A DNA stretch of 33,206 bases from Zarea fungicola (Eukaryota > Ascomycota > Sordariomycetes > Hypocreales > Cordycipitaceae): contig FWCC01000056.1 of assembly GCA_900169235.1 (NCBI GenBank), positions 1 to 33,206 of the forward strand, written 5' to 3'. The notes under the pieces were generated by a model that was not told the DNA's origin, searched no databases, and saw nothing but the letters and a program-made list of their open reading frames with translations. Made by a program: the position numbers and the translations under genes. This document shows positions 7,074-32,850 of the stretch, in pieces (position 1 is the stretch's first letter; every line of letters starts with the position of its first letter).

Positions 7074-10000
7074 ATGAGGCAGCCTGCTTTGGGGCTGAGC
7101 ATAACTAGTGTGGCAGAATTATTCAGCCTTGAAGCATTTCCGCGTGACCTTTACCACAAGGATCGATCTCTCGACTTTTTGGATTCGTATCCCCCAAAGT
7201 CGCTTCTTGAGGTCTGCCGTGACAGCAAGAGCGGCTGTCGATTCTGTCAAACACCGGGTTTGGCCTTGTATGAGCAGCCCCAAGGCGACGCAGAGATGCT
7301 AGCTTTTCATAGCATCCACACAAGTCGAGAAACAAGCGACGATGAGGGGCATGAGGCCAGGGCCGCAAAGCGACAGAGGCTAAATGGCCGGGCACACACA
7401 AGCGCCCCTGTCACGACCGCACTTTCTCATGACGAATACACAGTTGGTTGGATATGCGCCCTGCCAAAGGAATTGTCTGCTGCAACAGCCATGTTGGACA
7501 GCACACACAAGGACCTACCGAGGGCGGAAAACGACTTCAACACATATACGTTGGGCAGCATTGCCGCGCACAATGTCGTTATTGCTTGTCTTCCGTCGGG
7601 CTACTATGGCAACAACAATGCAGCTACGGTAGCGAGCAACATGCGCCGAACGTTTCCTCGCGTGCGCCTTTGCTTGATGGTTGGCATTGGCGGCGGGGCT
7701 CCTGGCAAGGCCGACGTACGACTCGGCGACGTAGTTGTTGGCGAAGGGGTGCTGCAATACGACCTGGGAAAGACCATTGGCCAGGGCTGTTTCATGCGAA
7801 CAAGCAGCATGAACAAGCCGCCGCTAGAGTTGCTAACGGCCGTCGCCAAACTGCGAGCGACGCATGCGCTGGCCGGTAGCCGAATTCCCTCAATTCTAGC
7901 CGAGATGCTTGAGCGCCATCCATCAATGGTGCATTACAGTTGTCGCGGCTCGCTGCAGGATCGGTTATTTGATAGTACATACGACCATGTCCAATCGAGG
8001 GACGTGCCGACGGAAAACTGCGAGCTTTGCGATACATCTCGTCTGGTGAAAAGACCGCCACGTGACGATATGAATCCAAAGATTCACTACGGAACTATTG
8101 CGTCTGGAAACCAAGTCATGAAACATGGCACAACTAGAGATGAGATGTCGCGCGATCTAAATGCGCTATGCTTCGAGATGGAAGGGTCAGGCATGATGGA
8201 TGGCTTTGCGGGTTTAGTTTTCCGTGGAATTTGCGATTACTCTGATTCTCACAAAAGCAAGCAATGGCAAGAAGTTGCAGCGGCCATCGCTGCTGCCTAC
8301 GCAAAAGAGCTCCTCTTAATCATACCGTCAGACACGGCCAAACCAAGGCCAATAGTTGCGGTGCCGTCAGCTGATATCGATGTTGGTAAGTAAGCTATCA
8401 GGCCATTTCCTCGTGCTGCATCTAGCTGAGACCAAGAATTCAGATCATCAACAAAATATCCTCGATGCCTTGAAATTCGCTCAAATTAATGCACGTCGAT
8501 TCAATATCCGGCCAAAATACTCGACAACCTGCCAATGGCTCTTGACGCAGCCTGAGTATCTAGACTGGCTAAACCCCGAAACAGCAGTCCAACACCGTGG
8601 CTTTCTCTGGATAAGGGGTGGTCCCGGCACTGGCAAGTCGACAATTATGAACTTTGCCTACAAAGATTCAGCAAAAGACAAGCAAAAGACAACCATCTCA
8701 TTCTTCTTCAACGCAAGAGGCGAGATTTTAGAGCGCTCTATTGAGGGCATGTATCGATCTCTCCTCTATCAGATTCTCGAAGCGCTGCCTCATCAGCTCC
8801 AGGTATTTGATGAGCCAGAACATCAGACTTCTTTGCACCAACTTCACGCAGCAATGGCGGGACAACAACATCCTACGTGGCAGGTCACCGTGCTTCAGGA
8901 TTTGTTACGAAGTGCTTTCGTAAAACTGGGCCCGAACGCGCTGACAATCTTTGTCGACGCTCTTGATGAATGCCCTGTTGATCAGGTGGAGGAGCTAGTG
9001 GAATTCTTTGAAGATGTCGGAAACAGTGCAGTACTGAACCATACGAGGCTTAATATCTGCTTTTCGAGCCGTTACTATCCACAAATCAATATCCAGTACG
9101 GGCACAAAATTGATCTGGAAGAGCAAGATGGCCACGAAAAGGACATTGCCATGTTCATACGAAACAAGCTCAAGGTTGGCACGGGAAAAGGCGCGGATGA
9201 AGTCAAGGCCGGGGTCCAAGCGAAAGCAAAAGGCATCTTCATGTGGGTTGTTCTAGTTGTCGACATTCTCAAGGCAGAATACATTGGTGGTCGGATTTTT
9301 AACGTTAAGAAGAGACTTGCTTCTTTACCAGCAGAGCTAAGTGACCTATTCAAAGAAATTTTGTCTAGAGATCAGAAAAACTTGGGAGACTTGCGGCTTT
9401 GCATTCAATGGGTTTTATTTGCAAAGCGTCCGCTAAAGCTAGAGGAGTACTATTTTGCGGCGGTATCTGGCCTCAGCCCCGAAGAGCTACAGGAATGGGA
9501 CCCAGACGAAGTTACTACAGACGCCATGGGCAAATTCGTGGTCAGTTCCTCTAAGGGACTTGCCGAAATCACGAAATCTAAAGGCCAAACGGTTCAGTTC
9601 ATTCATGAATCGGTACGAGAGTTTTTTCTAAAGGATGGGCTGCGAGAGCTCTGGCCCGACCTTGCTGCATCAGACTTCGAAGGTGCAAGCCACAGTCGTC
9701 TGCAGCAGTGCTGCTATGCCTACTTCAGGTTCAGCACATCCTCCACAATCAAATCTCTTCCGCAACCACTCCCAAAAGCCTCCTCTGGAGAAGCAAAGCA
9801 ACTGCGTGGCGATGTAGCGAGCAAGCTCCCCTTTTTAGACTACGCAACCCGCCATGTCCTCCATCACGCTAATGTGGCGGCCTATGCGATTTCACAGCAA
9901 GAGTTCCTGGTGAGCTTTCCCTTGAAAGATTGGATTATTCTTGACAATGTTTTGGAAGGTTTCGAGATCCGCCGTCACACACTGAATGCAAGTCTTCTCT

Positions 10001-11222
10001 ATATTTTGGCAGAGAAGAATTTCGCGAAACTTATAAAATATGCGTTATGCCTCAACCCCATAACTGATATCAAAGGCGAAAGATATCATTATCCACTGTT
10101 TGCTGCTTTGGTTACTGGCAATCAGGATGCCGTCAAGGCACTGTTACAGGCAGAGCCAGGCCACACAGATAATGAACTGTTTGCGCAGCTGCGTTACGGG
10201 GCAGATTTCGTAATTGACAAGGGCCAGACACCGCTATCGTGGGCGGCCACGAATGGATACGAAAAATTGGTGCGGATATTTCTTGAACAGGGCAATGATA
10301 TTGATGTAGAGGATATATACGGTGAGACGCCACTATTGGCGGCTGCTAGGGAAGGGNNNNNNNNNNNNNNNNNNNNNNNNNNNNNNNNNNNNNNNNNNNN
10401 NNNNNNNNNNNNNNNNNNNNNNNNNCAGATATCATGGCTAAGGATAGATACGGTGAGATGCCACTATTGGCGGCTACTAGGGAAGGGCATGAGACTATTG
10501 TGCGGCTACTAGTTGGAAAAGGTGCAGATATCATGGCTAAGGATAGACACGGCGATACGCCATTGAGCATGGCTTCTACAAGAGGGCATGAGGCTATTGT
10601 GCGGCTACTGGTTGAAAAAGGTGCAGATGTCATGGTCAAGGATCAAACCGGCAAAACACCACTACTAAGGGCTGCTGCGAGACGAAATGAGGCCATTGTG
10701 CAGCTTCTAATTGACAGAGGTGCAGATATCATGGCTAAGGATAGACACGGCGATACGCCATTGAGCATGGCTTCTACAGGAGGGCATGAGGCTATAGTGC
10801 GGCTTCTGGTTGGAAAAGGTGCAGATGTCATGGACAAGAATACAGATGGCTATACGGCATTGACAAGTGCTGCTGAGAGAGGACACGAGGCAGTTGTGCG
10901 GGTACTAATTGAAAAAGGTTCAGATATTGAAGCGAAGGTAGCCATTTCGGGCCAGACGCCACTGATGAAAGCTTCTGCGGCAGGGCATGAGGAGGTTGTG
11001 CGGCTACTAGTTGAAAACGCTGCATCTGTCATGGCCAAGGATGCGAATAATTGCACAGCACTAATGGCGGCCATTAAGATGGGGAAAACGAGGGTTGCAC
11101 AGCTCCTATTGAAGAGTGGAGCTGATATCAACGCAACAAACCTGGAGGGCGACACGGCAATGTCCTTGGCAATTAGGACAGGACAGAAAGAAATGATACA
11201 ATTACTAGAATCGCATCAGTAG
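7074..11222 (+). CDS. NLR-type STAND protein: PNP_UDP - NACHT - ankyrin repeats
   Basis: Exons are 7074-8385 and 8444-11222. The 58-nt intron (GTAAGT..CAG) restores frame at a GAT codon. Residues about 120-430 form a nucleoside-phosphorylase-like domain starting 'YTVGWICALPKE', with 'MVGIGGG', the ribose-site 'FEMEGSGMM' and the base-site 'CDYSDSHK'. A NACHT NTPase follows, with P-loop GGPGTGKS near residue 500 and Walker B 'IFVDALDE' near 605. Ankyrin repeats start near 10200 and run to the stop (TAG 11220-11222): about two before and eight after the 69-N gap. The gap breaks the apparent frame only because its length is an estimate. Fungal NLRs with this architecture are thought to sense non-self and trigger cell death; the PNP-like domain would be the effector. 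The start is uncertain: an ATG at 7296 is the alternative and would remove a 74-residue extension. Confidence 0.85.
10222..11216 (+). repeat. Ankyrin-coding tandem repeats, 99-nt period
   Basis: About ten 33-codon units with the ankyrin pattern D-x-x-G-x-T-P-L-x-x-A...G-H-x-x-[IV]-V-x-x-L-L-x-x-G-A-D-I. Two units 198 nt apart (around 10520-10634 and 10718-10832) differ at only four of about 115 positions. The units flanking the gap (10318-10356 and 10449-10487) differ at two of 39. Later units (10840-11216) are much more diverged. Such near-identity points to recent duplication or gene conversion. Confidence 0.85.
10357..10425. other. Assembly gap (69 N) inside the ankyrin repeats
   Basis: Codons are in phase 1 before the gap and phase 0 after it, so an in-frame gene needs a missing length of 1 modulo 3; 69 does not fit. 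If the missing part is repeat sequence, the units on either side predict 37 nt plus a multiple of 99 (37, 136, 235...). The gap most likely marks collapsed or unresolved repeats. Confidence 0.9.
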
Positions 11223-11945: not shown

Positions 11946-12691
11946 ATGTCGGAACCATTCAAACCAGCGCTCATAATCGTCGACCTACAGGAAGATTTCT
12001 GCCCCCCTGTAAGTCCAACCCCTCACCCGTCATGTAATTATATTCACTCACTCACTCACTCTCTGCAAATCAGAATGGCTCCCTCGCCGTGCAAGGCGGC
12101 CGCGCCCTCGCCCCTGTAATAAACACCCTCCTCTCCTACCCCTTCACCCTCAAAGTCGCCACCCGCGACTGGCACCCGCCCAACCACGCCTCCTTTGCCG
12201 TGAACCACCCCGGCGCATCGCCATTCACGTCCACGCACACAATCACCCACCCGTCGGACGCGGGCCGGACCTACACCACAACCCTATGGCCGGTGCACTG
12301 CCTCGCCGACTCCCTGGGGGCGGCGCTCATCCCGGAGCTGCACACCTCCCTCGTCGACGCCGTCGTGGATAAGGGCCAGCGGGTCGATCGGGAAATGTAC
12401 TCTGCGTTTTACGACCCCTTTGGCGAGTCCGACAGCGGATTGGCGGCGATGCTCAAGGATAAAGGCGTGACGCATGTCTTCGTCACGGGCGTGGCGTTTG
12501 ACTACTGCGTGCGCGCGACGGCCGTGCATGCCGCCGCGGAGGGCTTCGCGACCGTCGTCGTGGGCGATGCGACGAGGGCCGTCAAGGCGGATGATTGGGA
12601 CGCCGTGGTCGAGGACCTTAAGCGACAGGGCGTGCGTGTCGTTGCTTCCGACTCGGCAGAGGTGCAACGGGTCAAATCTATAAGAATTTAA
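11946..12691 (+). CDS. PNC1: Nicotinamidase (nicotinamide deamidase)
   Basis: Exons are 11946-12008 and 12074-12691. The 65-nt intron (GTAAGT..CAG, phase 0) contains a TCAC repeat. The product has 226 residues, close to yeast Pnc1 (216). It converts nicotinamide to nicotinate and ammonia in the NAD+ salvage pathway and keeps nicotinamide, an inhibitor of sirtuins, low. The isochorismatase-fold triad is visible: D13 in 'IIVDLQEDF', K121 in 'VVDKGQ' and the nucleophile C166 in 'VTGVAFDYC'. Metal ligands are D53 and H55 ('RDWHPPNH') and H96 ('LWPVHC'). The start follows CGCA and gives the conserved N-terminus. It is convergent with HMG-CoA reductase, with 274 nt between the stop codons. The gene is intact and GC-rich compared with the accessory region to its left. 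Confidence 0.93.
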
Positions 12692-12965: not shown

Positions 12966-15900
12966 CTACCGCTTGGATCGTTGCTGAGCGGCCGCGCTCT
13001 TGGCATTGGCCACCTTTTCCAGTCCATTCGTCATCGCCAACGAAACCGGCGTGGCCGGCGGCGCAGGCGTCGTCGTCCGTGACGGCGCCGCACTGCGGTT
13101 GTGCTGCATGTGTGCGCGGACCAAGTGGCCCGCCGCCAGCGCACTGCACAGCGACAGCTCACCGGCGAGGACAGACGCGGCAATGATGCGGGCCAGGCGG
13201 CGCGCATTGTCGCCGGGGTTGGTCGGGTGCGAGCCGCGCACGCCCAGCAGGTCCAGCATGGCGCTCTGCGGCTCCAGGATGGTGCCACCACCCAGCGTGC
13301 CCACCTCCAGCGACGGCATAGACACGGATATTTGCAGCGAGCCGCGGAGGTTCTTCATAATGGTGATGCAGTTGGCACTCTCGACAACCTGCGCAGGATC
13401 CTGGCCAGTGGCAAGGTACATGGCCGCAACAATGTTGGCGGCGTGCGCATTGAATCCACCCATGGCACCGGCCATGGCGGAACCAATCAGGTTCTTGCTG
13501 ACGTTGAGCTCAACCAGCGTGTCGACATCGCACTTGAGCACGCTCTTGACCACATCCGCCGGGATAATGGCCTCGGCAACAACACCCTTGCCACGTCCCT
13601 CGATCCAGTTAATGGCAGCAGGTTTCTTGTCGCTGCAGTAGTTGCCAGAAACAGAGATGATGGACATGTCCTCGAAGCCGCCTTCGGTAGCCATGACGTT
13701 CAGGGCATGCTCAACACCCTTGGAAATCATGTTCATGCCCATGGCGTCACCAGTGGTCGTGCGGAAGCGGATATACAGGTTGGTGCCAGCGAGTGCCGTC
13801 TTCATCGTCTGTAGTCGGGCGAAGCGGCTGGTCGAGTTGAAAGCCTTCTTCATCATGCTCTGGCCGTCTTCCGAGTCGAGCCACAGCTTGGCGGCACCAG
13901 CACGCTCCAGTGTCTCAAAGCTCACACAGGGACCACGGGTCATGCCATCGCCCGTCAGGACAGTAATGGCACCGCCGCCAGAGTTGATGGCCTTGCAGCC
14001 TCTGCTGGCACTGGCAACCAAGACACCCTCGGTGGTGGCCATGGGGATAAAGTAGCTCTGTCCGTCAATAACCAGGGGACCGGCGACACCGACGGGGATG
14101 GGCATGTAACCAATGACGTTTTCGCAGCAGGCGCCAAACACGCGCTCCCAGTCGTAGTTTTTGAATGGCAGCTTGGAGTGGTCCAGGCTGTGGGTAATGT
14201 GAGAGGTGGCCTTGGTGTGGGCAATAATGGTACGGCGAATCTTGACAGCGCGAGTAAAATCTTGGAGAGTCTTCTCGAGGGCATATCCGGGAATCTTGCC
14301 ACGCATGGACATGGAGACAACTTCCTCGTCAGTCATTTCGGGGACACGCTTCTCAAGCAGCAACTGGTCGAGCTCAGCATTGCTGCGGACGGCGGCAGGA
14401 GCAGGCTTCGATTTGGTCATGGCGAGACCCTCGCCTTCGTCGTCGGTAAGAGCTGGGGTGGCGGGCTCGGTGTGCAGGGGAGTGGGGGCGACATATTGAC
14501 CAAGAGGAATGGAGTTGGGCTCGGTATCGTTGAATCGTTGAGCGCGGGCAAGCTCCTTGCGGTCAATGTGGTGGTCAGAGGTCTCGGACATGGCAGGATC
14601 GTTGATGCCCCAGCGGGCAATGTTGAACAGATAGCCGTTGAGACCAACGCTCAGGGCGAGGGCGACAATAATCCATTTGGACAGGATAGGGTCCTCGAGG
14701 CTCTTGAGCAGGCTGCCGACAACACGGCCACCCATCCCGTAGCTGTCAAAGTGGCTGGCCTCGGATCCGTGCACGGCGGCATCGACGAGAGAAGCAGGAA
14801 GGGCGTAGTGGATAGAAGGGTATTCGAGCTCATACTTGATGGGGGTCAAGACAGAGACGAGCACGGCATGGCCACGGGCCTTGGCAGCAGCCAGGACAAC
14901 ATCCAGGCCGTTGGCGGCAACCTTGAAAGGATCCACGGGCGGAGTAGAAACGACACCACCAAGACCACCGGCCCAGGAGCGCAGAGTAGCAAAGGAGCTG
15001 CCGCTGCGGAAGGGAATGGTGCAAATGTTGACGACGTTGATCAAGACAAAGCCAGAAATCATGAGAACCTTGAAGGTCGGGACGCTGCTGCTCTTCATGC
15101 CACGACCAAAGAGAGCCTTGTCCTTGGAAGCCTTGGCATCGCCGTTGGGCCAGTCATTGCTAGAGGCGACGTTCTCGGCGACACGGCGGCTCACACCATC
15201 GGCCTCGAGAGCCTGGCGCATCTCAAAGTGGCGCTTAATGCGGTTAATCTCGAGCTTGATGCTGAGAATAGCAGTGTAAAAGGTAAAGAGCAGAATGCAG
15301 TCAAAGAAGAGAATCCAGGCGGCGAGGAAGCAGAACTGCTGCAGGCCACCCTGGACACCAGAAGCAGCTCCAAGAACGAGGATGGTGATTTCAATGGCGT
15401 AGTCGCGGATAATCTCGTAGCCCTTGTCCTTGATGGCGGCAAAGATGGCGGTCTGAATGGCATCTTGAGGAGGCGAGTTCTTGCCCTTGGTCTTGGTGTC
15501 TTTGGCCTGGTTGCGACGAGCCTCGATGGCATGGTTCAGCACGGCGCGTGTGAGGACAATGTTCTTCTCAAAGCCAATCGTGACGACGAGGAAGGGCAGA
15601 CCCTCGGAAAGAAGGACCACGCTAATGGGAACACCGAGCTTGGTGGTGACGGCCAGACCAAAGACAAAGGCAAAAGCAGAGGCAAAGAGAGTGCTCAGGC
15701 CGAGCCAGAGGTTGGAGCCCATGCGGCGCATAGAGAGGAAGAGGGAGACAAAGGTCAGATGCATGGACAAGTACCCAAGGACCATGATGACAATATCAAG
15801 GGTCTCGGCATTCTTGAGCAGATCCAAAAACTCGGTCCAGGAGTTGCGCGCCCACTCGACAAAGGTGTTGCGGGTGTGAACTCGGGCGGCCTTCATGATC

Positions 15901-16631
15901 CACATCTTCTCCTCGCGTCCATGGCGGGTGAGGACAGACTCGGTGCCCTCGGCGGGAATCTCCTGGGCGACGGTGAGGAACTCGCGGGCCTGGCTGTAGG
16001 GGAGCGAGTAGGCGAGGATGCTGTCCTGGGTGTAGGTGGTAAAGGAGTTTTGGGTGGCCGGGAGGGTGGTGATGGAGAGGTTCTGCGGGGCCGGGACGGC
16101 CTTGGCGAGGGGTGCGACGCCGACAGACTCGGCGGAGAGAGTATCGGGAAAGACAAAGGTCAAGAGGGCGAGGTGGTCAGACTGGGTAGTGCTCTGGGCA
16201 CCAGCCTCGACGCTCTGCCACTTCCATGCCGTCTCGGGGCCGGCAAAGAGCTGGCGGCTGCCCTCGGTCAGGGAGGACCAGTCGGCTTTGCTAACGGTGG
16301 CGGTCCGCTCGAACAAGCGCTCTTGAATCAGGCCAACATAGGAGGAGCTGGCGAGGACGGCGATGAGGACAATGGTGTGGATGGGGTGGGAGCCTGCCAG
16401 TCGGCTTAGGCAGTGTAGAAAGGGCGTAATGGTCTTGGTTGCCCAGGTCGGGGGGGTGGATTTGGCAGGGCCGGCGGTCTCGCCGCGGAACCGCATGGGA
16501 AGAAAGTTCATCTCGACGGTATCTGAAAAGGTGACTCGGCGGTTCGGTTTACGACATTTGCGAGGGCGCGGGGGTCGGAGATGGGTCCTAGGCGGGGTGT
16601 AAGTAATTGCTGGCGAACGGGGCAGCTCCAT
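12966..16631 (-). CDS. HMG1: HMG-CoA reductase (NADPH), class I
   Basis: One uninterrupted frame of 1221 residues, the usual size for filamentous fungi. It reduces HMG-CoA to mevalonate, the committed step to ergosterol and other isoprenoids, in the ER membrane. A first membrane helix lies near residues 84-103. A sterol-sensing-domain-like set of helices lies near 275-450 ('[15 protein letters not shown]'). A linker follows, and the catalytic domain runs from about 760 to the end. Active-site residues by comparison with the human enzyme: E868 ('TTEGVLVAS'), K1002 ('[10 protein letters not shown]'), D1078 ('GQDPAQ') and H1174 ('VRAHMQHN'). The Ser of 'HNRSA' (1180) matches the AMPK site of the animal enzyme. 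The start gives a basic N-terminus, but see the upstream ATG at 16653. M41 ('MNFLPMRF') is an alternative start. Confidence 0.95.
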
Positions 16632-16653
16632 GAGAGTGGCAGGACCTGTCCAT
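16588..16653 (-). promoter_or_regulatory. Candidate uORF overlapping the HMG-CoA reductase start
   Basis: An ATG at 16653 lies 22 nt before the HMGR ATG, in another frame. It opens 21 codons that run through the start of HMGR and stop at 16588-16590. If present in the mRNA it would lower translation of HMGR. Splicing at the CAG at 16647 would remove it; splicing at the CAG at 16665 would keep it. Confidence 0.35.
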
Positions 16654-16662
16654 GGGGACGGT

Positions 16663-16804
16663 CTGGGAATAGCAGCAAAAGAGTAGCAAAAGAACGGGAA
16701 AAGAAGAAGAAAGAAGAAAGAAGAAAGAAGAAAGAAGAAAGAAGAAAAAAGAAAAAAGAAAAAAGAAGGGATCGTGGGCGGTCTGGGTTCGGTATTAAGC
16801 TTAC
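16663..16804 (-). other. Candidate 5'-leader intron of HMG-CoA reductase
   Basis: On the minus strand a CAG|GTAAGC donor at 16804 is followed by a long pyrimidine tract and a TTCCCAG acceptor at 16663-16665, or alternatively GGACAG ending at 16647. Long leader introns with C/T tracts are common in highly expressed fungal genes. No coding frame tests it, so this is inference. Confidence 0.35.
16682..16770. repeat. Polypurine/polypyrimidine tract (GAAGAAA repeats)
   Basis: The plus strand shows almost pure A/G in AAGAAAG-type repeats over about 85 nt, and the minus strand, which is the HMGR leader strand, shows C/T. It may be a promoter CT box or the pyrimidine tract of a leader intron. Confidence 0.8.
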
Positions 16805-18427
16805 CTGAGATGGCGTGGCTAGTGACGTCCAGCTTTGTGGTGGTGAGCAGGATCGTGTGGCGTCAGCGCAATAGCTCAGCGGCAGCGGCAGGCAGGGTAT
16901 GATTGATCGTTTGATGCTGGGACGGCTGCGAGTGATGACAAACTTCAACGCCGGTTATGTCGATGTGGATGTCGGGCTAAGTTTCTTCTTTGTTGAGTGT
17001 AACAGGTTTGCAGGAACAATAGCAGCGGATGCAGTAGGATGCACCAAGCGTCAATTGGATGGGCGTGTAGCAACACAATTGGAGGGCAAGTCGGTGGCGG
17101 ATCGGAGCAAACACCACTGTACAGACAAGAGTCAATCGTCGAGCACGCTGCAATCGTTATCAATCTGTCGACCGCAAGCTGCTGTCGGTGGTAAAAAGAA
17201 GGACAAGAGCCGGTCTGATTCCCCTCAGGGTTTGGAGATGAAGGCGGTATGGGAAGGAAAGAAAAAAAGGAAAGCCCCAGTAAATAGTAACTTGGTCATA
17301 GATAGACTGGCTATGATGGAGAAGGGACCCGAGACGAGCCAGTGATAAGGACGATCCCCTGGCGAGATTCGAATTGCGGGTCCGAGAGTTGGGTAGCGCG
17401 TGAATAGTAAAAGAAAAAGATGGAACCAAAAAAGAAGATAAAAAATTTGAACGATGCCGAATTGTCGATGCGAATGCGCTCGCTAATACGCTTTGGTTCA
17501 GTCCTTGGTTTGTTAGTGTGTCGGCTCCAGTAGCAGGTGCTGTGCCACAGAAAAGTACCCCCTTAGCAATAGAGTGCCTGTTGTTACTGCCGTATTACTG
17601 TCATCATTACTGTCTGCTGCTACGCCGGTACCTAGGCCCCGTCGGCGAATACGCAGGCCTGATAGCCGGTGTTCGTCCGCGACAAGCCTCATGCACAATT
17701 CTCGCCCGGCCTGTGCTAGCACCATCTCTATACGCAGCCAATTGGCGACTCTACCGTTGAGACAGGGCCCCACTGATGCAGGGAAAGCAAGAAAATAGCA
17801 GGGAAAAGGCAGTGAAAAATTGGTGAAAAAATAAAATGGCTGGCTAGGGGGCGGCCCCCAGCCTTGTTGCGGTGAGGCCACAGGCGATTGGGTACCTGAG
17901 CTGCTACCCGGGGCTGCCAACTGGCACTGCTCCAGCGGCATTAAGTACACGCTAGCCAAAGTACTACTAACCAAAGTACTAACAAAAAATATAGGGGTTC
18001 GTTATACGCCGTACATTTTGCGAATACGCATACGCATGCCCCATTGCCGAACGGATCATTCCGTGTCCAGCAGCAGCATCATACAAACGCAATCTTGGGC
18101 GATCCCAATTCGCACTGCCACGTTTAAAACTTGATTCCATCATCAATGATTGCAATTTTATTAACTTCAATTCACGAAATCAGCTGCGTTAAATAATAAT
18201 ACTGCGCGTAAATCTTGCCGCCTCGTCACGCTGGGTATGATCGCCACGCAATAACTGCACTTTTCCCCAACAAAAATGTGGTAGTAGATGCCACAAGCTC
18301 AATGCTGAAACAGCCCTCCGCGCATTCGAAAAAAAGGAAAGAAAAACAAAATGCGCCAAAATCATAAGTATGCTTCGGAAAAAATCATAAGATCAGCGGC
18401 AAGCGACATCATATCATCGTACCCTTG
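16805..18427. other. Intergenic region between oxygenase and HMG-CoA reductase genes
   Basis: About 1.6 kb with no credible gene. The right end is the 3' side of the oxygenase gene and the left end the promoter of HMGR. I looked for the fungal sterol regulatory element near the HMGR leader and found no clear match. Frames of 60-150 codons here have random-looking composition. Confidence 0.45.
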
Positions 18428-19997
18428 CTATGCAGCTGGTAGTTCGACACTCGACACTGCCGGGTAGCCACCTCGTTGCATCCCGCCGCTCTCTGCCTCC
18501 GCACCGGCTGCAACCACCCCCGGCGGCGGGCCATTGGGCCGACTACTATCACCACTACCTCCGCCGCCACTCGTTGCTGACGGCGTCGTCGTCGTCGTCG
18601 TCTGCCGCAGCTGGGGCTGTGCCAGCATCCTGCACCTGTCTTCCTGCTGCAGCTTCTTGGTCGTGATGCGATCGGGGTAGTTGCGCAGGAACATGTTGGT
18701 AAAGTGTGTCCCGTAGTGGATGCCATCCTCCGCCGCACTCTGCTTACTCCGGCCCTCGTACCCCGGCAGCGGCTTCAGCACCGACGAAAAGTTGGGCTCG
18801 TGAAAATACGCGAATGCGAAGCGCTCGCGTGTGTTGAGGCCGACCTTGTGTGGCGTCGACTTGAGATGGCTATTTGTCATGTACTGCATCATGTCGCCTA
18901 CAGTGGAAAGTCAGCTTGCCGTGCAGCATGCAAATCTTATTCGTTGCTTACCCGGAAATACGGTAAAGACACCGGGAACTGGCGGCACATAGACCCAGCC
19001 GGAATCATTCTCGCGGAGACCGGCCGCGCTCTTTTCCCAGTTGGCAAAGTGTTCGCCTTGGTGTGGCGGTCGGACAAAGAGACCTGCTTACGCATTTAGA
19101 ACCAAAAAACGCCGAGACTTTATTTGACAGTTATCCGCGTACCACCGACATCATCTTGGGCAGCCATGACCAACAGCCCGTAATCTGTATGGGACCCGAT
19201 CCCACGGCCCTTTTTGCCCTTGCCGTTTGTTCGGTCTCGATGGGGGAATCTGGAAATTTACACATTAGCCAAACAAACAGACAACAGACAACACCCCCCC
19301 TTATGGTACTCTTGTCTTATCGCCCGACATACCGTAAAACTCGCATATGGTGCCACCCGTCCTCGGTATACCGCTTCAGTGAGCCCTCCGGCACATTGAG
19401 CCCCAGCTCAACCAGCGAGAGCAGCTCGTCGCCGCTCCTCGACAAGTCGTCCATGTACGCCGTCATGTGCGTCTTCATCTCCGCGCTCGGCCACGGACAC
19501 GGCCCATGACACGGCCACTTGCTCACCACCCGCCGATCGTCAGCCGGCAGGTCCTTGGTCACGGTGAAAATCTCCGAGTAGTCCGCCACCCCGTCCGTAA
19601 TCTCCTCCCCCGAGGCAATGTACCCAGAGTAGCTGTGCGCGTCCACGCACGCCCGCTTATCGGCGGCGGCGCTGCGCTGGAAGAAGTGCCGGCTCGCCGC
19701 GTTGGCGTTGTGGTAGATGCGCTGCTGCTCGGGCGACATGGCCACCTGGAAGATGCCGTCGCGCCGCCACGCCGCAATCATGGCCCGCGCCATGGACCGG
19801 TCAAAGACGGAGCCGGTAATCTTGGCCGGCAGGCAAAATGTGTCTAGACGGCCCACGCGAGCGGTGAAGCCAGGCGGCATGGTGCCGGCGGCCGTAGTGG
19901 GAGTAGGTGTAGATGTAGTGGCCATCATGACCCTCGTGGCGGCCGCCTTGCCACCACCAGACAGCAACGTCTGGGTGCGTCCTACCAGAGATGGCAT
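18428..19997 (-). CDS. Ethylene-forming-enzyme-like 2-oxoglutarate/Fe(II) oxygenase
   Basis: Four exons on the minus strand: 19333-19997, 19143-19249, 18952-19083 and 18428-18897. All three introns are GT..AG and in phase, giving 457 residues. It has the jelly-roll 2OG-oxygenase fold of the isopenicillin N synthase group. Iron ligands are H242 and D244 ('GSHTDYG') and H318 ('STPHKV'); R327 ('NTRERF') would bind 2-oxoglutarate. The similarity is specifically to Pseudomonas and Penicillium ethylene-forming enzyme: 'YSGYIASGEE', 'DGWHHMRVLR', 'AAQDDVGGL', 'FAYFHEPNF' and 'THFTNMFLRNYPDRITT' are near-matches. Counterparts of the arginine-site residues are present (E132, T134, R373, Y375). It differs in a 40-60-residue N-terminal extension and a 60-residue low-complexity C-terminal tail. 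EFE makes ethylene from 2-oxoglutarate, and hydroxylates arginine. Whether this one does is open: many fungal homologues are untested. Confidence 0.88.
18583..18603. repeat. GTC trinucleotide repeat in the oxygenase tail
   Basis: CGTCGTCGT-type microsatellite on the plus strand. On the coding (minus) strand it is ACG codons and encodes the run of Thr in the low-complexity tail of the ethylene-forming-enzyme-like protein. Such repeats vary in length between strains. Confidence 0.8.
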
Positions 19998-22031: not shown

Positions 22032-22606
22032 CTAGCCCTCATCCTCATCACTGGTGGCGTCAATGTTGGCCTTGTCCGACTTGTCCTTCTTCTGCTTCTT
22101 CACGGCTACGGGAGAGACGGCCGTGGCATCTTCCGACGCGTCGACGAGCTTTCCCATCTCGCGAAGCTTGTTATTGATTGATGGCACGAGCTTCAGCAGA
22201 GTGGCGTACTGCTCTGGAGAGAGGGAGATGCCCTGGGCAGAATTAGTTTATTATTTGAACAATTTTTTTTTATAAAAAAAGAAATTAATGAAACAATTGG
22301 ACTAGTTACCTTTTTACCCGGGAGCATTTTACCATCCTTTTCGTAATACTCTCGAATGTTAATCAGACAGGTATTCTTAAACTGGGACACGCCAACGCGG
22401 CGTTTGCTGGTGAGCTGTGGCGGGTCAGCGTTAGTTGAGGTTACACGCCTGGTTATATCTGGACAACTTGCCTCCCAGTAAGCATTGCCGTCGTCGTCTT
22501 TGCCCGCAGGAGAGACTAGACCGGAGCTAGTCTTGGTCTTTTTGGCAGCCTTGTGAGCGATCTCGGTGTCGCTGGCCGACGACACACTGGCGCGTCGCTT
22601 GACCAT
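22032..22606 (-). CDS. SUB1: Transcription coactivator Sub1/PC4 (p15)
   Basis: Exons are 22472-22606, 22310-22414 and 22032-22232 (minus strand), giving 146 residues, all introns in phase 0. The second intron is GTAACT..CAG. The first, 57 nt, begins GCAAGT and ends CAG with a CTAAC branch point, so it is a GC-AG intron. Reading through it would insert 19 unrelated residues into the conserved domain. The PC4 domain spans residues about 43-105: '[16 protein letters not shown]', '[19 protein letters not shown]', 'ISLSPEQY'. It binds single-stranded DNA and melted promoters and helps RNA polymerase II initiation, elongation and reinitiation in the nucleus. The Ser/Lys-rich N-terminus and the acidic C-terminus ('SDEDEG') are typical of the fungal proteins. 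It is divergent from the PXA-PX gene, with 825 nt between the starts. Confidence 0.93.
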
Positions 22607-23431
22607 GGCAGGAGGATCTTGGATTGGCGTATATGCAAAGGACGGCGTGTGCAGTGTGCAGTTTTCTTATATTGCCCCTTGTAGGATTCAGTTACCGTGA
22701 TGGAGATGACTCAGTCGGCTGATTGGCTGTGTTGGTGAGTCGTTGTGAATGTAAGGTGAGATGAACGACGCGCTGCCAGGTGTTGGGTGAAGGCATTTAG
22801 CGGACGCGTGCCCCCAGTAAGCCTATTTAACTTTTAATAAGGGACCGACACTGCCAAACGCTACATTGACGCCAGCGCACGTGATCATCCTTTTTGGCAG
22901 CTGGCTCATCTTCTACAGGGTCTGCAGGCAAACAAAAAAGCCAGATAAACAGACTCAATCCGTCTGTGTTTAATCCCATCAATAGATTGATGCCGTCGAA
23001 TATGCACATGCCCTTTTACGCACCTCAACCGCTACGGCCTATACATCACGGCCTCTAGATGGAGCCACCAAGACACAACTACGGCCCGGCATTGAGCTAG
23101 CATCAGGGGTGGCCCGATTTATGCCTTAATTGGTACACTATCCACTGTTTCCCCCCTGAGAGGTCTCCCCGGCCTCAAGCAATCTAAATTTGGATTTATT
23201 ACGCAGCCTAGGAGCTCCAAATTTTTGAACAAGGGAGGTCTGCGACAAGGTTCTCGCCCGGCCCCCATTCGTCTTCTATTGTCGCAGCCCTTCCCTATCG
23301 CTCGGCGGCCATCTTTCGCTTTCATCCTTGACATGCTGTCGACAGGTCGCATTTTACCAACGTATTTGCCAGTACGCACTCCGCTAATCCTGGAGCTTTC
23401 CTACAACGACGCGACGTCGTGACGTACTCCG
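22607..23431. other. Divergent promoter region, SUB1 / PXA-PX gene
   Basis: An 825-nt space between two head-to-head genes, holding both promoters and leaders. No coding frame of interest. No specific binding site can be named with confidence. Confidence 0.5.
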
Positions 23432-26400
23432 ATGGCCGACGCCGCCGAGCCTGCGCAGGGTCTCGAAGCCCCTCCTCGCCATGGTGCAGACCCTGCCACC
23501 CCCGACGCCAGCGAACCGCTCTTGTCGGAATTCGAAAAACCAGAAAAACCAGAAATCCAAGAAAAGCAGAATGCAGCTGCTGAATCTATAGCAGAGCAGA
23601 CAAAGGCCGACTTGCCGGAGCCGGCGGGACCGGGTAGTAATAGCCAGTCTGCAGCGCTAACAAGAATCATGGAGTTCCTCGCAAAAGCGTCCCCCGCGAC
23701 ACTTGCCGGCATTGCTGTTGGCTTTGCGGGCGTAACGTATGCCGTGCTTGGCCAGCTTGGTCTACTCGTCATTGGCGCTGTTGGCGGTGCCGCAGCTTTT
23801 GCTGTCTTGGAAGGTCGCAATCCAGACATTGCTCGAACAGTTCGAGGTGAAAAAGGCCCGGATGCGCTGGAACGCATTTGGACCGATTTACAGACCGTCA
23901 AGCTGTCAGAAAACGAACCCGAGGACGACGGTCCGGATAATGTCATTTTCAAAGCTTTCGACGACTTTCGACCGGAAACGCGAGACGCTCTTGGAGGGCT
24001 TGTCGATGCCATTATAAAAGACTACGTCAAATGGTGGTACTCTCCCATCATTCCCACAGACCACTCCTTCCCTCTTGCTTGTCGCAAGACCCTTACCGCA
24101 TATATCCTCGGCGTTTCGAACCACATGGCTAGAAAACGGCCAGCCGACGCCTTTCTCGATCTATTGACCAACTCTTCTTCCATCGCCATTGCCTTCATGG
24201 CAGAGCTTGCCTCTGCCTTTGCCGACGTGCCCGCCGACTCCACCATGACAGCTGTCGATGCCGTTTACATGTATCTTGCGGATAATCCCGACTCACGCCT
24301 GGCCAATCTGCTCAACCAGAAGCAGCAGGCGGCCAAATTCAAAATGGTATCCGAGGATCTGTTGGCGTTCATGGAACCCAGTGCCTACAACTGTGACCCA
24401 GCGCGTGCACTTCTCCGAGAAGTTCTCGCAAACACAGTGTTGGAGAATTTATTGCAAACCTGCAGCAAGCCAGAGTGGATCAATGGCTGGATTGTCTATC
24501 TTTTGGAGGCCGGAGAGCCCGACATCAACCAGGCCATTGACGTCGGCATGCAAACCGCTCGAGATACTGCCAATAATATTTTTGCCGATATTGACGGAAA
24601 TGTTGGCAACATTGGCATCGCAAAGCCCGCCAGTCGCTCCTCTGGAGAACTTGAACGAGGTAGACGAAAGGAGATCCAGACGCATAGAAAGCGACTAAGC
24701 AAAGCCGATGAAGAGGTCGAGGTCGCAATTGAAGAGATGAAGAGAATGAGTGGAATGATGGAACATGACAACGAGAGCAGACAATCAATTACCAACGATT
24801 CGTTACCACCCTCCAAGAAAAGTATGGATCTGTTCTCTGCGGAAGGAACTGCTTCGAACCGAACTGTCGGCACCAATGCGCAAAACTCAACACCACCCTT
24901 GGCTCAAGGCCGCTCTTCTCCCTTTGGAACTACTTCTATTGATGGTGCAAGTGAACCTGCATTCACCCCCATCACGCCTCGTTCTACAATGGAAACCTCC
25001 AGCCCAAACTCGTCATCACCAAAGTCGGGAAGTCGAGATAGCCAGCAGTTTACAAGCTTCGAACAGATTGTGCCGCCGGCAGAGCCCGAACAAGAGGAAG
25101 ATGCTCCACGCAAGGCGCCCCTCACGCTTCACAATGCATCGTTTACGCTTCATGATGACGCCACAGGTGATACCGCCAAAATTCGCAGCAAGCCAAATTG
25201 GGACTACTTGATCCAAGTTGAGCCATCGTCTTCTTCTCACTCTGGTTGGATGATTGTGAGACGATACTCTGATTTTGAGACACTGCACGAAATCTTGCGA
25301 AGAATCGCCACAGTCTCTGGCGCCACAGCGTTTACAGAGCTGCACAAAGAGCTGCCGAGCTGGAAGTTGCATAACAGAGAGTCGCTACGCGGCGAGCTTG
25401 AGCGCTATCTGCGCGATGCTTGCTGGTATCAGTCTCTGGCGGAGAGCGAAGGTATGAAGCGATTCCTGGAAAAGTCACAGGGGCACACGCATGGAAACAG
25501 CAAATCCTTTGCCTGGGAGAGTGTAGGCAAAAATATGCTCGACGTTCTCGCCATTGCGCCCAAGGGTGCAATGGAGGGCGGCAAGACCTTTGTGGACGGC
25601 GTCACTGGTGTATTTGGCAACTTTCCCGGCATCGGCAAGAAAGCACCAAGCCAGTCTGTCGACTTGACACCGAATAGCAAACGACTGTCGCTGTCTACCC
25701 CGGTTCGTACGGATACCATGAGGTCATCGCCTGCCAGATCAGAGCGTGGCAGTATCGACAGCCAGCGCTCATCCGTCGTCTCTACACAGCCTGGCAGGAT
25801 GCCCATGATGGAGCGTCGGCCAAGCTTGCAGTTCCAGGGAGATGGAGACGGTGACATGGTACGGGTCGGGCGGTCGGAGCGCATGGACTCGACTGCATCG
25901 GCGTCGGTCAGTGCCCGGCCGAGTAGAGAGCACAGCCGAGCCTCGAGCCTGGCACCACCGATGCGCTCCCCCTCATCCATCAGCCTCGAGTACGTCAAAC
26001 TACCACCACCACCAGACGAGATGGCAGACGACTACGAATCTCCTATACATATGAACGAGAGGGCCCACAGCAAGAACCGCTCCATTGGCCACATGTCACA
26101 GGCATCGCTCGGCTCGACACAAGGCGCTGCCACAAACGGGAAGAAGTCTGTCGTGCGACCGACGAAGGTACACTCGAAGCTCAGCGAGGGAGAAACGAGG
26201 GTCGCCGTGGAGTTGCTGTTTGCCGTCATCAACGAAATGTACACGCTGTCGTCTGCGTGGAACATTCGCCGCACGCTGCTGACTGCCGCCAAATCATTCC
26301 TCCTCCGCCCCGGGAACCCGTCGCTCCTCACAGTGCAGACTCTGATTCAATCATCGGTGCTGGATGCCTACACGGCCGACTCGGGCATCGCGGAGCAGCT

Positions 26401-26671
26401 CCGCAATATTCGAGAGAATAGCATGCCGACGGAGGAGGAGCGCGCGGCCTGGCCGGCGGAACTGACGACGGAAGAAAAGGAGCAGCTGGCCGCCAAGGCG
26501 CGCAAGCTGCTCATCCAGAGCGGCGTCCCGACGGCGCTCATGGGTGTCATGGGCCAGGCCGCCACGGGCGAGGCCCTGGGAAGAGTCTTTGACTGTCTCC
26601 AGATTGAAGAGGTGGCGAGAGGTCTCATTTTCGGCTTAATTCTGCAGGGCGTCAGGGTGCTCACCCACTAG
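23432..26671 (+). CDS. PXA-PX-Nexin_C protein, Mdm1/SNX-like membrane tether
   Basis: One intronless frame of 1079 residues starting at an ATG in good context (CCGATGG). After an acidic, Pro-rich leader there is a hydrophobic hairpin (residues about 86-130, Ala/Gly/Val-rich), then a PXA domain (about 180-390, including 'VDAIIKDYVKWWYSPI'). A long disordered Ser/Pro linker follows, then a PX domain (about 560-690) with the lipid-binding 'RRYSDF' near 607, a second disordered part, and the C-terminal nexin domain (about 915-1075). The order matches yeast Mdm1 and animal SNX13/14/25, which tether ER to vacuole/lysosome or lipid droplets, but no RGS domain is seen between PXA and PX. A role at ER contact sites through phosphoinositide binding is inferred from the family. 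Confidence 0.9.
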   Translation: MADAAEPAQGLEAPPRHGADPATPDASEPLLSEFEKPEKPEIQEKQNAAAESIAEQTKADLPEPAGPGSNSQSAALTRIMEFLAKASPATLAGIAVGFAGVTYAVLGQLGLLVIGAVGGAAAFAVLEGRNPDIARTVRGEKGPDALERIWTDLQTVKLSENEPEDDGPDNVIFKAFDDFRPETRDALGGLVDAIIKDYVKWWYSPIIPTDHSFPLACRKTLTAYILGVSNHMARKRPADAFLDLLTNSSSIAIAFMAELASAFADVPADSTMTAVDAVYMYLADNPDSRLANLLNQKQQAAKFKMVSEDLLAFMEPSAYNCDPARALLREVLANTVLENLLQTCSKPEWINGWIVYLLEAGEPDINQAIDVGMQTARDTANNIFADIDGNVGNIGIAKPASRSSGELERGRRKEIQTHRKRLSKADEEVEVAIEEMKRMSGMMEHDNESRQSITNDSLPPSKKSMDLFSAEGTASNRTVGTNAQNSTPPLAQGRSSPFGTTSIDGASEPAFTPITPRSTMETSSPNSSSPKSGSRDSQQFTSFEQIVPPAEPEQEEDAPRKAPLTLHNASFTLHDDATGDTAKIRSKPNWDYLIQVEPSSSSHSGWMIVRRYSDFETLHEILRRIATVSGATAFTELHKELPSWKLHNRESLRGELERYLRDACWYQSLAESEGMKRFLEKSQGHTHGNSKSFAWESVGKNMLDVLAIAPKGAMEGGKTFVDGVTGVFGNFPGIGKKAPSQSVDLTPNSKRLSLSTPVRTDTMRSSPARSERGSIDSQRSSVVSTQPGRMPMMERRPSLQFQGDGDGDMVRVGRSERMDSTASASVSARPSREHSRASSLAPPMRSPSSISLEYVKLPPPPDEMADDYESPIHMNERAHSKNRSIGHMSQASLGSTQGAATNGKKSVVRPTKVHSKLSEGETRVAVELLFAVINEMYTLSSAWNIRRTLLTAAKSFLLRPGNPSLLTVQTLIQSSVLDAYTADSGIAEQLRNIRENSMPTEEERAAWPAELTTEEKEQLAAKARKLLIQSGVPTALMGVMGQAATGEALGRVFDCLQIEEVARGLIFGLILQGVRVLTH

Positions 26672-30552: not shown

Positions 30553-32850
30553 CTAGGGCTTGAAGACGGCACTGGTCAGTAACATCTGTACTTCCGGCGT
30601 CGACCACTTTTTGGGCGGGCTGCTGGCCTCCAGCACCAGCAGCGGCGCCGGCGTCGTGGAAGCAGTCGAGCCCACGCTCCTCATGCTCGCTGCGTCTCCA
30701 TTCAGCATCTCGTGGCTTCGCTTCCTTGCCTGCTCGGTGAGGGTCTCCTGCGAGGCACCACCCAGCATGCTGCTGGCGTCCTCGTCGCCGTTGCCGAGAC
30801 GGGATATCTCGTCCTCGACGTCGGCTAGGAGGGCGTAGAGGTCGTCGCCCGCATAGATGCGGATGCTCTCCACGCCGGGCCGCCCCTTGATGGTCGCGTC
30901 GCTCGTGGAGCGGCTCAGATCCTGGCCGGCGGTGGCCTGCGCCTCAATCAGAGGCTGCTCCAGGATGGTGCTGGGCACTTGGGCCACCACCCGCTGCGGC
31001 GAGGGCGAGCTGCTGCCCGTGCGGCGCGGCGATGATGATGTGATGAGGGTCTGCTTCGTTGGGCTCCTCGGTGGGGTGGATACATCCTGCATCATCATCC
31101 TGCAGGACGAGCTCGTGGCACCACCACCGCCACCACCGCCACCATGTTGTGCCTGGTAGGGGGACGCCACCACCGTTGTGCTGATGCTGCTGCCGTTGGT
31201 GCAGTCAGGTACGGGCAGGATGGCGGCCGCGGCGACGTGCTCCAGCAGCTTCTGGCGAACCCTGGTCCGGCGGTTCTCAGCCTGCTCCAGCTTGGTCACC
31301 CAGTCGTCAATGGACGAGTCCAGCTCGGCGAGGGCCTCTTCCTGCTTGAGCATGGAGTCGTGGCTAAACTTGGCGACGCGGGGGGAGCGCAGGTATTGGC
31401 AGATGCGTGAGTGTAGATTGCGGCGACCGGCGCGGAGGGAAGTGTATGTGCGGCGTAGGTACTCTGTTCTGTCATCAAGCTGGCGGAGTTCCTTTTGTAG
31501 CCAGTTAGTATGTACACAAAATTTAATTGACTAGATATGGGAACTTGTCGTACCTTGGAGAGCGCTTCAACATCCTCGACTCTCAACACTTCAAATCGCT
31601 CTGCTTGCCCCAAGGCTTGCTTGTGGAGCGCAGTGACATCGTTGGCATTGAGCTTTCCAATCGCTTCGGCGGGCTTGAATCCCCATGGGAGTTCCTCGAA
31701 AGCCCGGCGCTCCGAGCTTTTCGTCTGCTGTGCCTCCGTCGTCTTGATCGGCTTGCAGGCTTCCGGTCGCTTTCGTGGTCTGCCTCTATCCATGATGCTC
31801 ATGGTGGAGGACTCCGAGGCCCCTCTTCTGTGGCCCATTGCGCTTGCACTTCGGGTGCCTTCGTCGTGTGTAGTCATCGGTCCTTCCCAGGGATGGGGAG
31901 AGACTCTATAGTCGATATGAGGAGCAGATATGGGTGTGGGAAGAGAAGAAGAAAAGGTTTCTGGCGTCGTCACATTGGATCGAGAGTTGTACAGGTCAGG
32001 AGTGGAAGCGGGTGTCAAGCGACCCAGGCTCGGAGTGCTCGTTTCGAATCGTCCGTATCGCTGGGAATCTGCAGGCGGCGTGCTTCCAGACCGAAGCTGG
32101 CTGCTGGAATGCTTCGACTGCAGTCTGGGGATGGGGGCGTTTGTGGAGGGAATGACAAGAGGAGTCAGCTTTCTCGACGACAGCAATGAATCTGTGCCGT
32201 CTAGTTCATGCATATCATCTAGAACCATGTTTAGGTCTGGCGTTCTCATTGTCGCTCTTAGAATGTGCTCGATTGGTCCATAAAATCTCCCACTACCATT
32301 TGGAGCGCTCGATGATCTCTCATGAAGTGGCGGACGGCCAGGTATTGTAGCTACTGCAGTGTCAGCAGGGTCAGCCAGCGAAAGGACAGGGCGTACATAC
32401 GAGAGTCCATTGAAATTTCCTGTACTGTAGTCATTGGCCCCAGTTCCGGGACGCTCACTTTGCGACGCCTGACCAGATTGTTCTGATTCAGTCGAATGCG
32501 GATTCCTGCCAAAGAAGTGACCTTTGGGGTCGCCTCGGCAGCAGGCTGGGGGACGGGCAATGCTTTGTTTGTGTTGGGTGCATTGGGAACTGGCAATGGC
32601 TTATCCTTGGGAAACAGCTGATAGCGTTGCGGCTGCTCTGCCTGTGCCGCCTTGAGGGCAGCAAAAGACTTGCCGCTGTGCTTTGGTGGTGAAGCCGGCT
32701 GTACAGATTGCATGTTAGTGGTAGTTGGCATACAGCAAACGAATGTGTGGTGGTGGTGCTCACGCAGTAAAATGTTCCGAGTGTGGGCGACGAAGGCTTT
32801 GATATAGTAGCAGACTCGACCGGAGTCATGCAATTGGCAATGTGCGCCAT
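30553..32850 (-). CDS. Uds1-domain ('up-regulated during septation') protein
   Basis: Four exons on the minus strand: 32764-32850, 32401-32698, 31554-32353 and 30553-31491. The introns (65, 47 and 62 nt) are GT..AG and in phase, and the third uses an AAG acceptor with a CTAAC branch point. The product has 707 residues. The Uds1 region spans residues about 348-484: 'EELPWGFKPAEAIGKL', then 'ELRQLDDRTEYLRRTY' and 'ICQYLRSPRVAKF', ending in a charged helix likely to be a coiled coil. The flanks are disordered, Ser/Pro-rich, with a Gly8 run and SP/TP sites. The founding member is a fission-yeast gene induced at septation; filamentous-fungal homologues are poorly studied. A link to septum formation is inference. 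The first exon is supported by splice sites and phase only; an ATG at 32728 within the first intron is the alternative. Confidence 0.82.

What the first reader, a model, noticed from the sequence alone, without database searches (positions are those of the whole stretch)
18428..19997. Fungal homologue of ethylene-forming enzyme with an intact active site
The spliced protein keeps the iron ligands (H242, D244, H318), the 2-oxoglutarate arginine (R327) and counterparts of the residues that place L-arginine in bacterial EFE (E132, T134, R373, Y375). Ethylene made by this single enzyme from 2-oxoglutarate is known from Pseudomonas and Penicillium digitatum. A producer carrying this gene could affect plant hormone signalling or its own development.
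Basis: partly seen in the sequence, partly recalled or inferred. Interest (0 to 1): 0.75.

Follow-up and report, generated by a model that had tools for sequence, protein, structure and literature searches.

The report
Fungal ethylene-forming enzyme homologue
A fungus closely related to the mushroom parasite Zarea (Lecanicillium) fungicola carries one intact gene of the known ethylene-forming-enzyme family; it probably makes ethylene, but the intact active site does not prove it, because a relative with the same active site made none when tested.

Summary
It is an EFE-family orthologue: best solved structure P. digitatum EFE 9eir (E 1.1e-167); core identity 65.9% to P. digitatum EFE, 54.4% to PK2 EFE. 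The tree puts it with Cordyceps, Beauveria and Aphanocladium (100/99). All 23 published contact positions match P. digitatum EFE, but so do those of the P. rubens homologue, reported to make no ethylene in yeast (PMC4202696). "Intact active site" therefore does not separate producers from non-producers. At second-shell sites that lowered ethylene when mutated, the query has the active state at 199 and 304 but not at 212/213. The family is widespread and close relatives already bear the EFE name: a new member of a known kind. A neighbouring gene is 96% identical to Zarea fungicola, the dry-bubble mushroom pathogen. Since ethylene is reported to inhibit Agaricus primordia, a mushroom host is a better target to test than plant signalling. 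That link is untested.

The parts
18428..19997 (-). EFE-family gene, start codon to stop codon, 4 exons, 457 aa
   Evidence: Pfam DIOX_N and 2OG-FeII_Oxy
19333..19997 (-). exon 1; holds E132 and T134 (arginine site) and R219
19250..19332 (-). intron 1, 83 nt, GT-AG
19143..19249 (-). exon 2; holds H242 and D244 (iron)
19084..19142 (-). intron 2, 59 nt, GT-AG
18952..19083 (-). exon 3; holds the loop with E268, counterpart of PK2 E215
18898..18951 (-). intron 3, 54 nt, GT-AG
18428..18897 (-). exon 4; holds H318 (iron), R327 (2OG), R373 and Y375 (arginine site), and the C-terminal tail with TAG stop
19881..19997 (-). N-terminal extension of 39 residues with no acidic residue, possible mitochondrial presequence
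   Evidence: helix moment not above shuffles
12966..16862 (-). neighbour: HMG-CoA reductase frame (HPIH, sterol-sensing and reductase domains)
22193..22666 (-). neighbour: PC4 coactivator exon
23423..26671 (+). neighbour: PXA-PX-nexin protein, 96% identical (684 of 709) to Zarea fungicola over the aligned part

Best explanation
[quoted passage not shown] It would bind Fe(II) with H242, D244 and H318, hold 2-oxoglutarate with R327 in a hydrophobic pocket, and place L-arginine with E132, T134, R373 and Y375. It would split 2-oxoglutarate to ethylene and CO2 as the main reaction, with a smaller share of arginine C5-hydroxylation (giving guanidine and pyrroline-5-carboxylate) and of uncoupled succinate formation, in proportions like P. 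digitatum EFE. Shown here: gene structure, family membership, conservation, contact residues identical to P. digitatum EFE. Inferred: expression, activity, product ratio, import into mitochondria.
For: 9eir E 1.1e-167, and the ten best of 37 solved-structure matches are EFEs. Query equals P. digitatum EFE at 23 of 23 contact positions and PK2 at 20 of 23. Hydrophobic 2OG pocket (L173, F175, I186, V196, A198, L206, A279, A281, F283 in PK2 numbering) and the loop glutamate E215 kept. Active state at A199, F278, I304 and I322. No departure at 129 conserved columns. Tree place 100/99 with Cordycipitaceae. PMC12329707 (sections 14, 16, 19 read): reconstructed ancestors with the fungal-type I85, F280 and N317 (Nodes 253, 326) make ethylene.
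Against: P. rubens has the same contact residues and no departures at the conserved columns, yet made no ethylene in yeast (PMC4202696). The query has H and Q at PK2 212/213, where V212Y/E213S lowered ethylene, and F at 280, where C280F lowered it in PK2, although active P. digitatum also has F (PMC4202696). Giving the P. chrysogenum protein all ten PK2 residues did not restore ethylene, so unknown determinants exist. The tree groups active and reported-inactive Penicillium proteins together. No expression or assay data.
Confidence: 0.65

Rival explanations
1. An EFE-family protein that keeps the fold and first shell but has lost useful ethylene formation, like the tested P. rubens homologue; it would hydroxylate arginine or another substrate, or turn 2OG into succinate.
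For: P. rubens precedent (PMC4202696) with identical contact residues; query differs from both active enzymes at PK2 212, 213 and 235.
Against: Query has the active state at 199 and 304, where P. rubens does not; of 47 core columns at which P. digitatum and P. rubens differ the query sides with P. digitatum at 15, P. rubens at 6, neither at 26. Absence of ethylene in yeast could also reflect poor expression of the P. rubens protein.
Confidence: 0.27
2. Another 2OG oxygenase (ACC oxidase, PaIPNS-like or secondary-metabolite enzyme) that merely resembles EFE.
For: Shares the Pfam domains of the large family; 19 PF03171 stretches in this genome.
Against: ACC oxidases match only a short stretch at E 8.8e-6 or weaker, PaIPNS (6jyv) at 2.5e-31, against 1.1e-167 for EFE. 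The PaIPNS replacements at PK2 175, 279, 281 and 316 are absent.
Confidence: 0.03
3. A gene no longer used (silent or decaying).
For: No expression data were available.
Against: Open frame through four exons, canonical splice sites, third-position GC 75%, no departure at 129 conserved columns, C-terminal end like that of six Cordyceps and Beauveria proteins.
Confidence: 0.05

Closest known systems
Cordycipitaceae EFE homologues (Cordyceps javanica P0001, C. militaris P0002, C. fumosorosea P0003, Beauveria bassiana P0004, Aphanocladium album P0007)
   Same: 80.4-83.1% core identity; one tree group 100/99; C-terminal end GYPxxxxE in P0001-P0006
   Different: I found no activity test of any of them in print; the tail is absent from the P0007 model
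Penicillium digitatum EFE (efeA; PDB 9eir, 9eis; P0075)
   Same: 65.9% core identity; 23 of 23 contact residues; long N-terminal extension
   Different: Query has V, H, Q, S, M at PK2 172, 212, 213, 235, 254 where P. digitatum has I, A, D, E, I, and M for L at 22; 58-residue C-terminal tail against 2
Pseudomonas savastanoi (syringae) PK2 EFE (PDB 5v2t and others)
   Same: 54.4% core identity; iron, 2OG and arginine ligands
   Different: I, D, N for V85, A87, C317; N-terminal extension
Penicillium rubens (chrysogenum) homologue, reported to make no ethylene in yeast (P0096)
   Same: 63.1% core identity; the same 23 contact residues
   Different: T, G, Y, N, V at PK2 172, 199, 278, 304, 322 there against V, A, F, I, I in the query

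Membership tests
2OG-dependent ethylene-forming enzyme (EFE) | Iron triad H189, D191, H268 (PK2 numbering) | tested here: met
   H242, D244, H318
2OG-dependent ethylene-forming enzyme (EFE) | 2OG arginine R277 and hydrophobic 2OG pocket | tested here: met
   R327; L173, F175, I186, V196, A198, L206, A279, A281, F283 unchanged
2OG-dependent ethylene-forming enzyme (EFE) | L-arginine site E84, T86, R171, Y192, R316, Y318 | tested here: met
   E132, T134, R219, Y245, R373, Y375
2OG-dependent ethylene-forming enzyme (EFE) | Long loop with E215 | tested here: met
   E268 in a loop of about full length
2OG-dependent ethylene-forming enzyme (EFE) | Groups with active EFEs in a tree | tested here: inconclusive
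   Inside the EFE family, but that family holds both active P. digitatum and reported-inactive P. rubens in one group
2OG-dependent ethylene-forming enzyme (EFE) | Second-shell residues whose mutation lowered ethylene in PK2 (A199, I304, V212/E213) | tested here: inconclusive
   A and I kept, V212/E213 are H and Q (PMC4202696)
[quoted passage not shown]
   needs enzyme assay
Mitochondrially imported fungal EFE | Basic N-terminal presequence free of acidic residues, forming an amphipathic helix | tested here: inconclusive
   0 acidic and 3 basic in 39 residues; helix moment reached by 33% of shuffles
ACC oxidase | Closest solved relatives are ACC oxidases | tested here: not met
   best ACC oxidase E 8.8e-6 over residues 277-350
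EFE-like IPNS (PaIPNS type) | Y, S, P and K at PK2 175, 279, 281 and 316 (PMC12329707) | tested here: not met
   query has F, A, A, R

The most novel reading that the evidence does not exclude
The producer is a mushroom parasite (Zarea fungicola or a near sibling) that releases EFE-made ethylene into its fungal host. Ethylene is reported to inhibit Agaricus mycelial growth and primordium formation and to bind two Agaricus histidine kinases, so parasite-made ethylene could contribute to the undifferentiated tissue of dry bubble disease: one fungus using a fungal hormone against another. Against it: the EFE family is widespread in fungi that are not mushroom parasites, and efeA deletion in P. 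digitatum left citrus infection incidence unchanged (PMC7558865).
Probability: 0.06. Interest if true: 0.75.

Novelty: new member of a known kind. Interest (0 to 1): 0.35.

Why it matters
EFE is a one-enzyme route to ethylene, and P. digitatum EFE is called the first structurally characterised eukaryotic one (PMC12060275). An orthologue with the same first shell but a different second shell would help to find what decides ethylene output, which the known active-site residues do not. If it is active in a mushroom parasite, a role of ethylene between fungi becomes directly testable.

Tried and rejected
Active-site residues as proof of activity: rejected, because P. rubens passes the same tests. 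ACC oxidase and PaIPNS-like identity: rejected. Second EFE in the genome: none found. Specialised gene cluster: of the 18 open frames that I gave to Pfam (56 were listed, at 120 aa or more), those with a match are housekeeping or unrelated genes; the frames between HMG-CoA reductase and the EFE gene were not scanned. Ethylene receptor domain PF25487 in the same genome: no match, but none of 14 control genomes rang, so uninformative. NCBIfam: no family. Direction of transfer between bacteria and fungi: undecided; outgroup branches of 8-10 changes per column make the root unreliable. Mitochondrial helix: not above shuffles. Structure prediction: not available. Literature on EFE with Beauveria, entomopathogenic fungi and Cordyceps: 2, 2 and 0 papers; I read passages of one (PMC13106811; a pine enzyme in its references) and only listings of the others. 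'Lecanicillium fungicola' with 'ethylene': 10 papers; I read passages of two, which do not report ethylene made by that fungus. The older name Verticillium fungicola was not searched.

Full report
Observation. The gene reads on the minus strand from ATG 19997 to TAG 18430-18428 through four exons and three short GT-AG introns (83, 59, 54 nt), giving 457 aa. Exons are GC-rich (57-65%, third position 75%), introns are not (42-46%). Pfam finds DIOX_N and 2OG-FeII_Oxy. No second EFE was found in the 43.1 Mb assembly; beyond the gene's own exons the best match is 29% identical at E 1.5e-9, although the assembly holds at least 19 PF03171 stretches.

Family. Of 37 solved sequences matched, the ten best are EFEs, led by P. 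digitatum EFE 9eir (E 1.1e-167) and then Pseudomonas EFE (E 4.6e-115); ACC oxidases match a short stretch at 8.8e-6 or weaker. The protein search scored 979 proteins at E <= 0.001 and listed 120. The top seven are Cordyceps, Beauveria and Aphanocladium proteins, several already named '2-oxoglutarate-dependent ethylene/succinate-forming enzyme'. Identity over 331 core columns is 80.4-83.1% to five of these, 65.9% to P. digitatum EFE, 63.1% to the P. rubens homologue and 54.4% to PK2.

Tree. 73 rows: the query, 58 of the 120 listed hits, 12 of the 120 listed hits and 2 own-genome outgroups. The PK2 row is P0121, a synthetic EFE-FLAG construct 98% identical to PK2. The query joins the six Cordycipitaceae rows used (100/99) inside a 29-row group (100/99) of Hypocreales. 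P. digitatum (active) and P. rubens (reported inactive) lie in one 8-row Penicillium group (100/100). The root is unreliable because of very long outgroup branches, so I do not say whether the gene moved from bacteria to fungi or back.

Active site. At the 23 contact positions listed in PMC9101411 (parts 1-2 of 6 read) the query equals P. digitatum EFE at 23, PK2 at 20; P. rubens also equals P. digitatum at 23; 51 of the 120 listed hits do. A 22-site set is intact in 90 of 120, P. rubens included. At 129 columns at least 95% conserved among the 120 hits, the query, P. digitatum and P. rubens each depart at none.

Ten-position test. At the ten positions of Johansson et al. (PMC4202696, parts 1-2 of 4 read) P0096 has all ten P. 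chrysogenum residues. The query has V, A, F, I, I at 172, 199, 278, 304, 322 as in PK2; M at 22 and 254 as in P. rubens; H, Q, S at 212, 213, 235 as in neither. That paper found clearly lower ethylene for A199G, I304N and V212Y/E213S in PK2, no significant change for the other six mutants, and lower ethylene for C280F; the query has F at 280, as does active P. digitatum. Giving the P. chrysogenum protein all ten PK2 residues did not restore ethylene. The pocket changes and the shortened loop that PMC12329707 (sections 14, 16, 19 read) connects with near-inactive relatives (Y175, S279, P281, K316) are absent, and ancestors with fungal-type residues (Nodes 253, 326) make ethylene there. On balance I put ethylene formation at about 0.65.

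Ends. The 39 residues before MPPG hold no acidic and three basic residues. Among the 92 of 120 hits with an extension of 20 or more residues acidic residues are 3.0% against 12.2% in the core. This fits the mitochondrial presequence proposed for P. digitatum (PMC4202696; PMC12060275, sections 3, 20, 22 read), but the helix moment is reached by 33% of shuffles. The 58-residue C-terminal tail ends like those of P0001-P0006 (GYPxxxxE, 6 of 120 hits), which supports the modelled stop.

Genome and neighbours. HMG-CoA reductase lies on one side, a PC4 exon and a PXA-PX nexin on the other; the frames between HMG-CoA reductase and the EFE gene were not scanned. The nexin is 96% identical (684 of 709, about 66% of its length) to Zarea fungicola NQ176_g10992, with part of the mismatch at what looks like a mis-modelled start of that record, against 82-85% for Akanthomyces, Cordyceps, Aphanocladium and Beauveria. 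Zarea is in Cordycipitaceae. The published L. fungicola 150-1 assembly is 44.6 Mb in 781 contigs (PMC6509529, whole text); the window's is 43.1 Mb in 456. I conclude Z. fungicola or a close sibling. EFE and nexin bear locus tags two apart in Aphanocladium album (PWT90_09319, 09317) and C. javanica (V2A60_000691, 000689), and equal longest-contig lengths in C. fumosorosea, a B. bassiana cluster and Purpureocillium lavendulum; the lengths differ for C. militaris (other assemblies), Metarhizium rileyi, Conoideocrella and Tolypocladium paradoxum. So the locus looks old in this family; this rests on tags and contig lengths, not on sequence read here.

Role. In P. digitatum, efeA deletion abolished ethylene in culture without changing growth, sporulation or infection incidence, though one of two mutants gave lower severity in two of three experiments (PMC7558865, passages). 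EFE homologues in Fusarium are described as widespread and needing functional tests (PMC6746940, passages), and the EFE route is cited for F. oxysporum and P. cyclopium besides P. digitatum (PMC9866368, passages). Agaricus bisporus is reported to be inhibited by ethylene in mycelial growth and primordium formation and to have two ethylene-binding kinases (PMC9603746, abstract and passages). L. fungicola causes undifferentiated host masses (PMC6509529; PMC8000694, passages). The link is mine and untested; the wide spread of the family argues against a role special to mushroom parasites.

Verdict. A genuine, intact member of a known enzyme family in a new genome. Activity is likely but not shown, and not decidable from the residues cited.

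Noticed in passing
window 7026-11222 (+): NLR-like frames: phosphorylase (PNP_UDP_1), then NACHT-type NPHP3_N and ankyrin repeats, in overlapping frames; whether one gene with introns or more was not settled, and part of the ankyrin array is unresolved.
   Followed up: partly
window 18428-18700 (-): Low-complexity C-terminal tail of 58 residues whose last residues (GYPxxSxE) are shared with six Cordyceps and Beauveria proteins but not found in the other 114 listed hits; role unknown.
   Followed up: partly
P0029: A protein filed under the rust fungus Austropuccinia psidii groups with Diaporthe batatas (100/91): contamination or transfer.
   Followed up: no
window 13815-16409 (+): An 864-residue open frame antisense to HMG-CoA reductase with no Pfam match, probably a by-product of the coding strand.
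   Followed up: no
P0009 and Trichoderma hits: Cladobotryum mycophilum and several Trichoderma, genera that include other mushroom parasites (PMC8000694 passages), also have EFE homologues.
   Followed up: no
window 12038-12691 (+) and 30553-32600 (-): Isochorismatase-domain frame and Uds1 (up-regulated during septation) frames.
   Followed up: no
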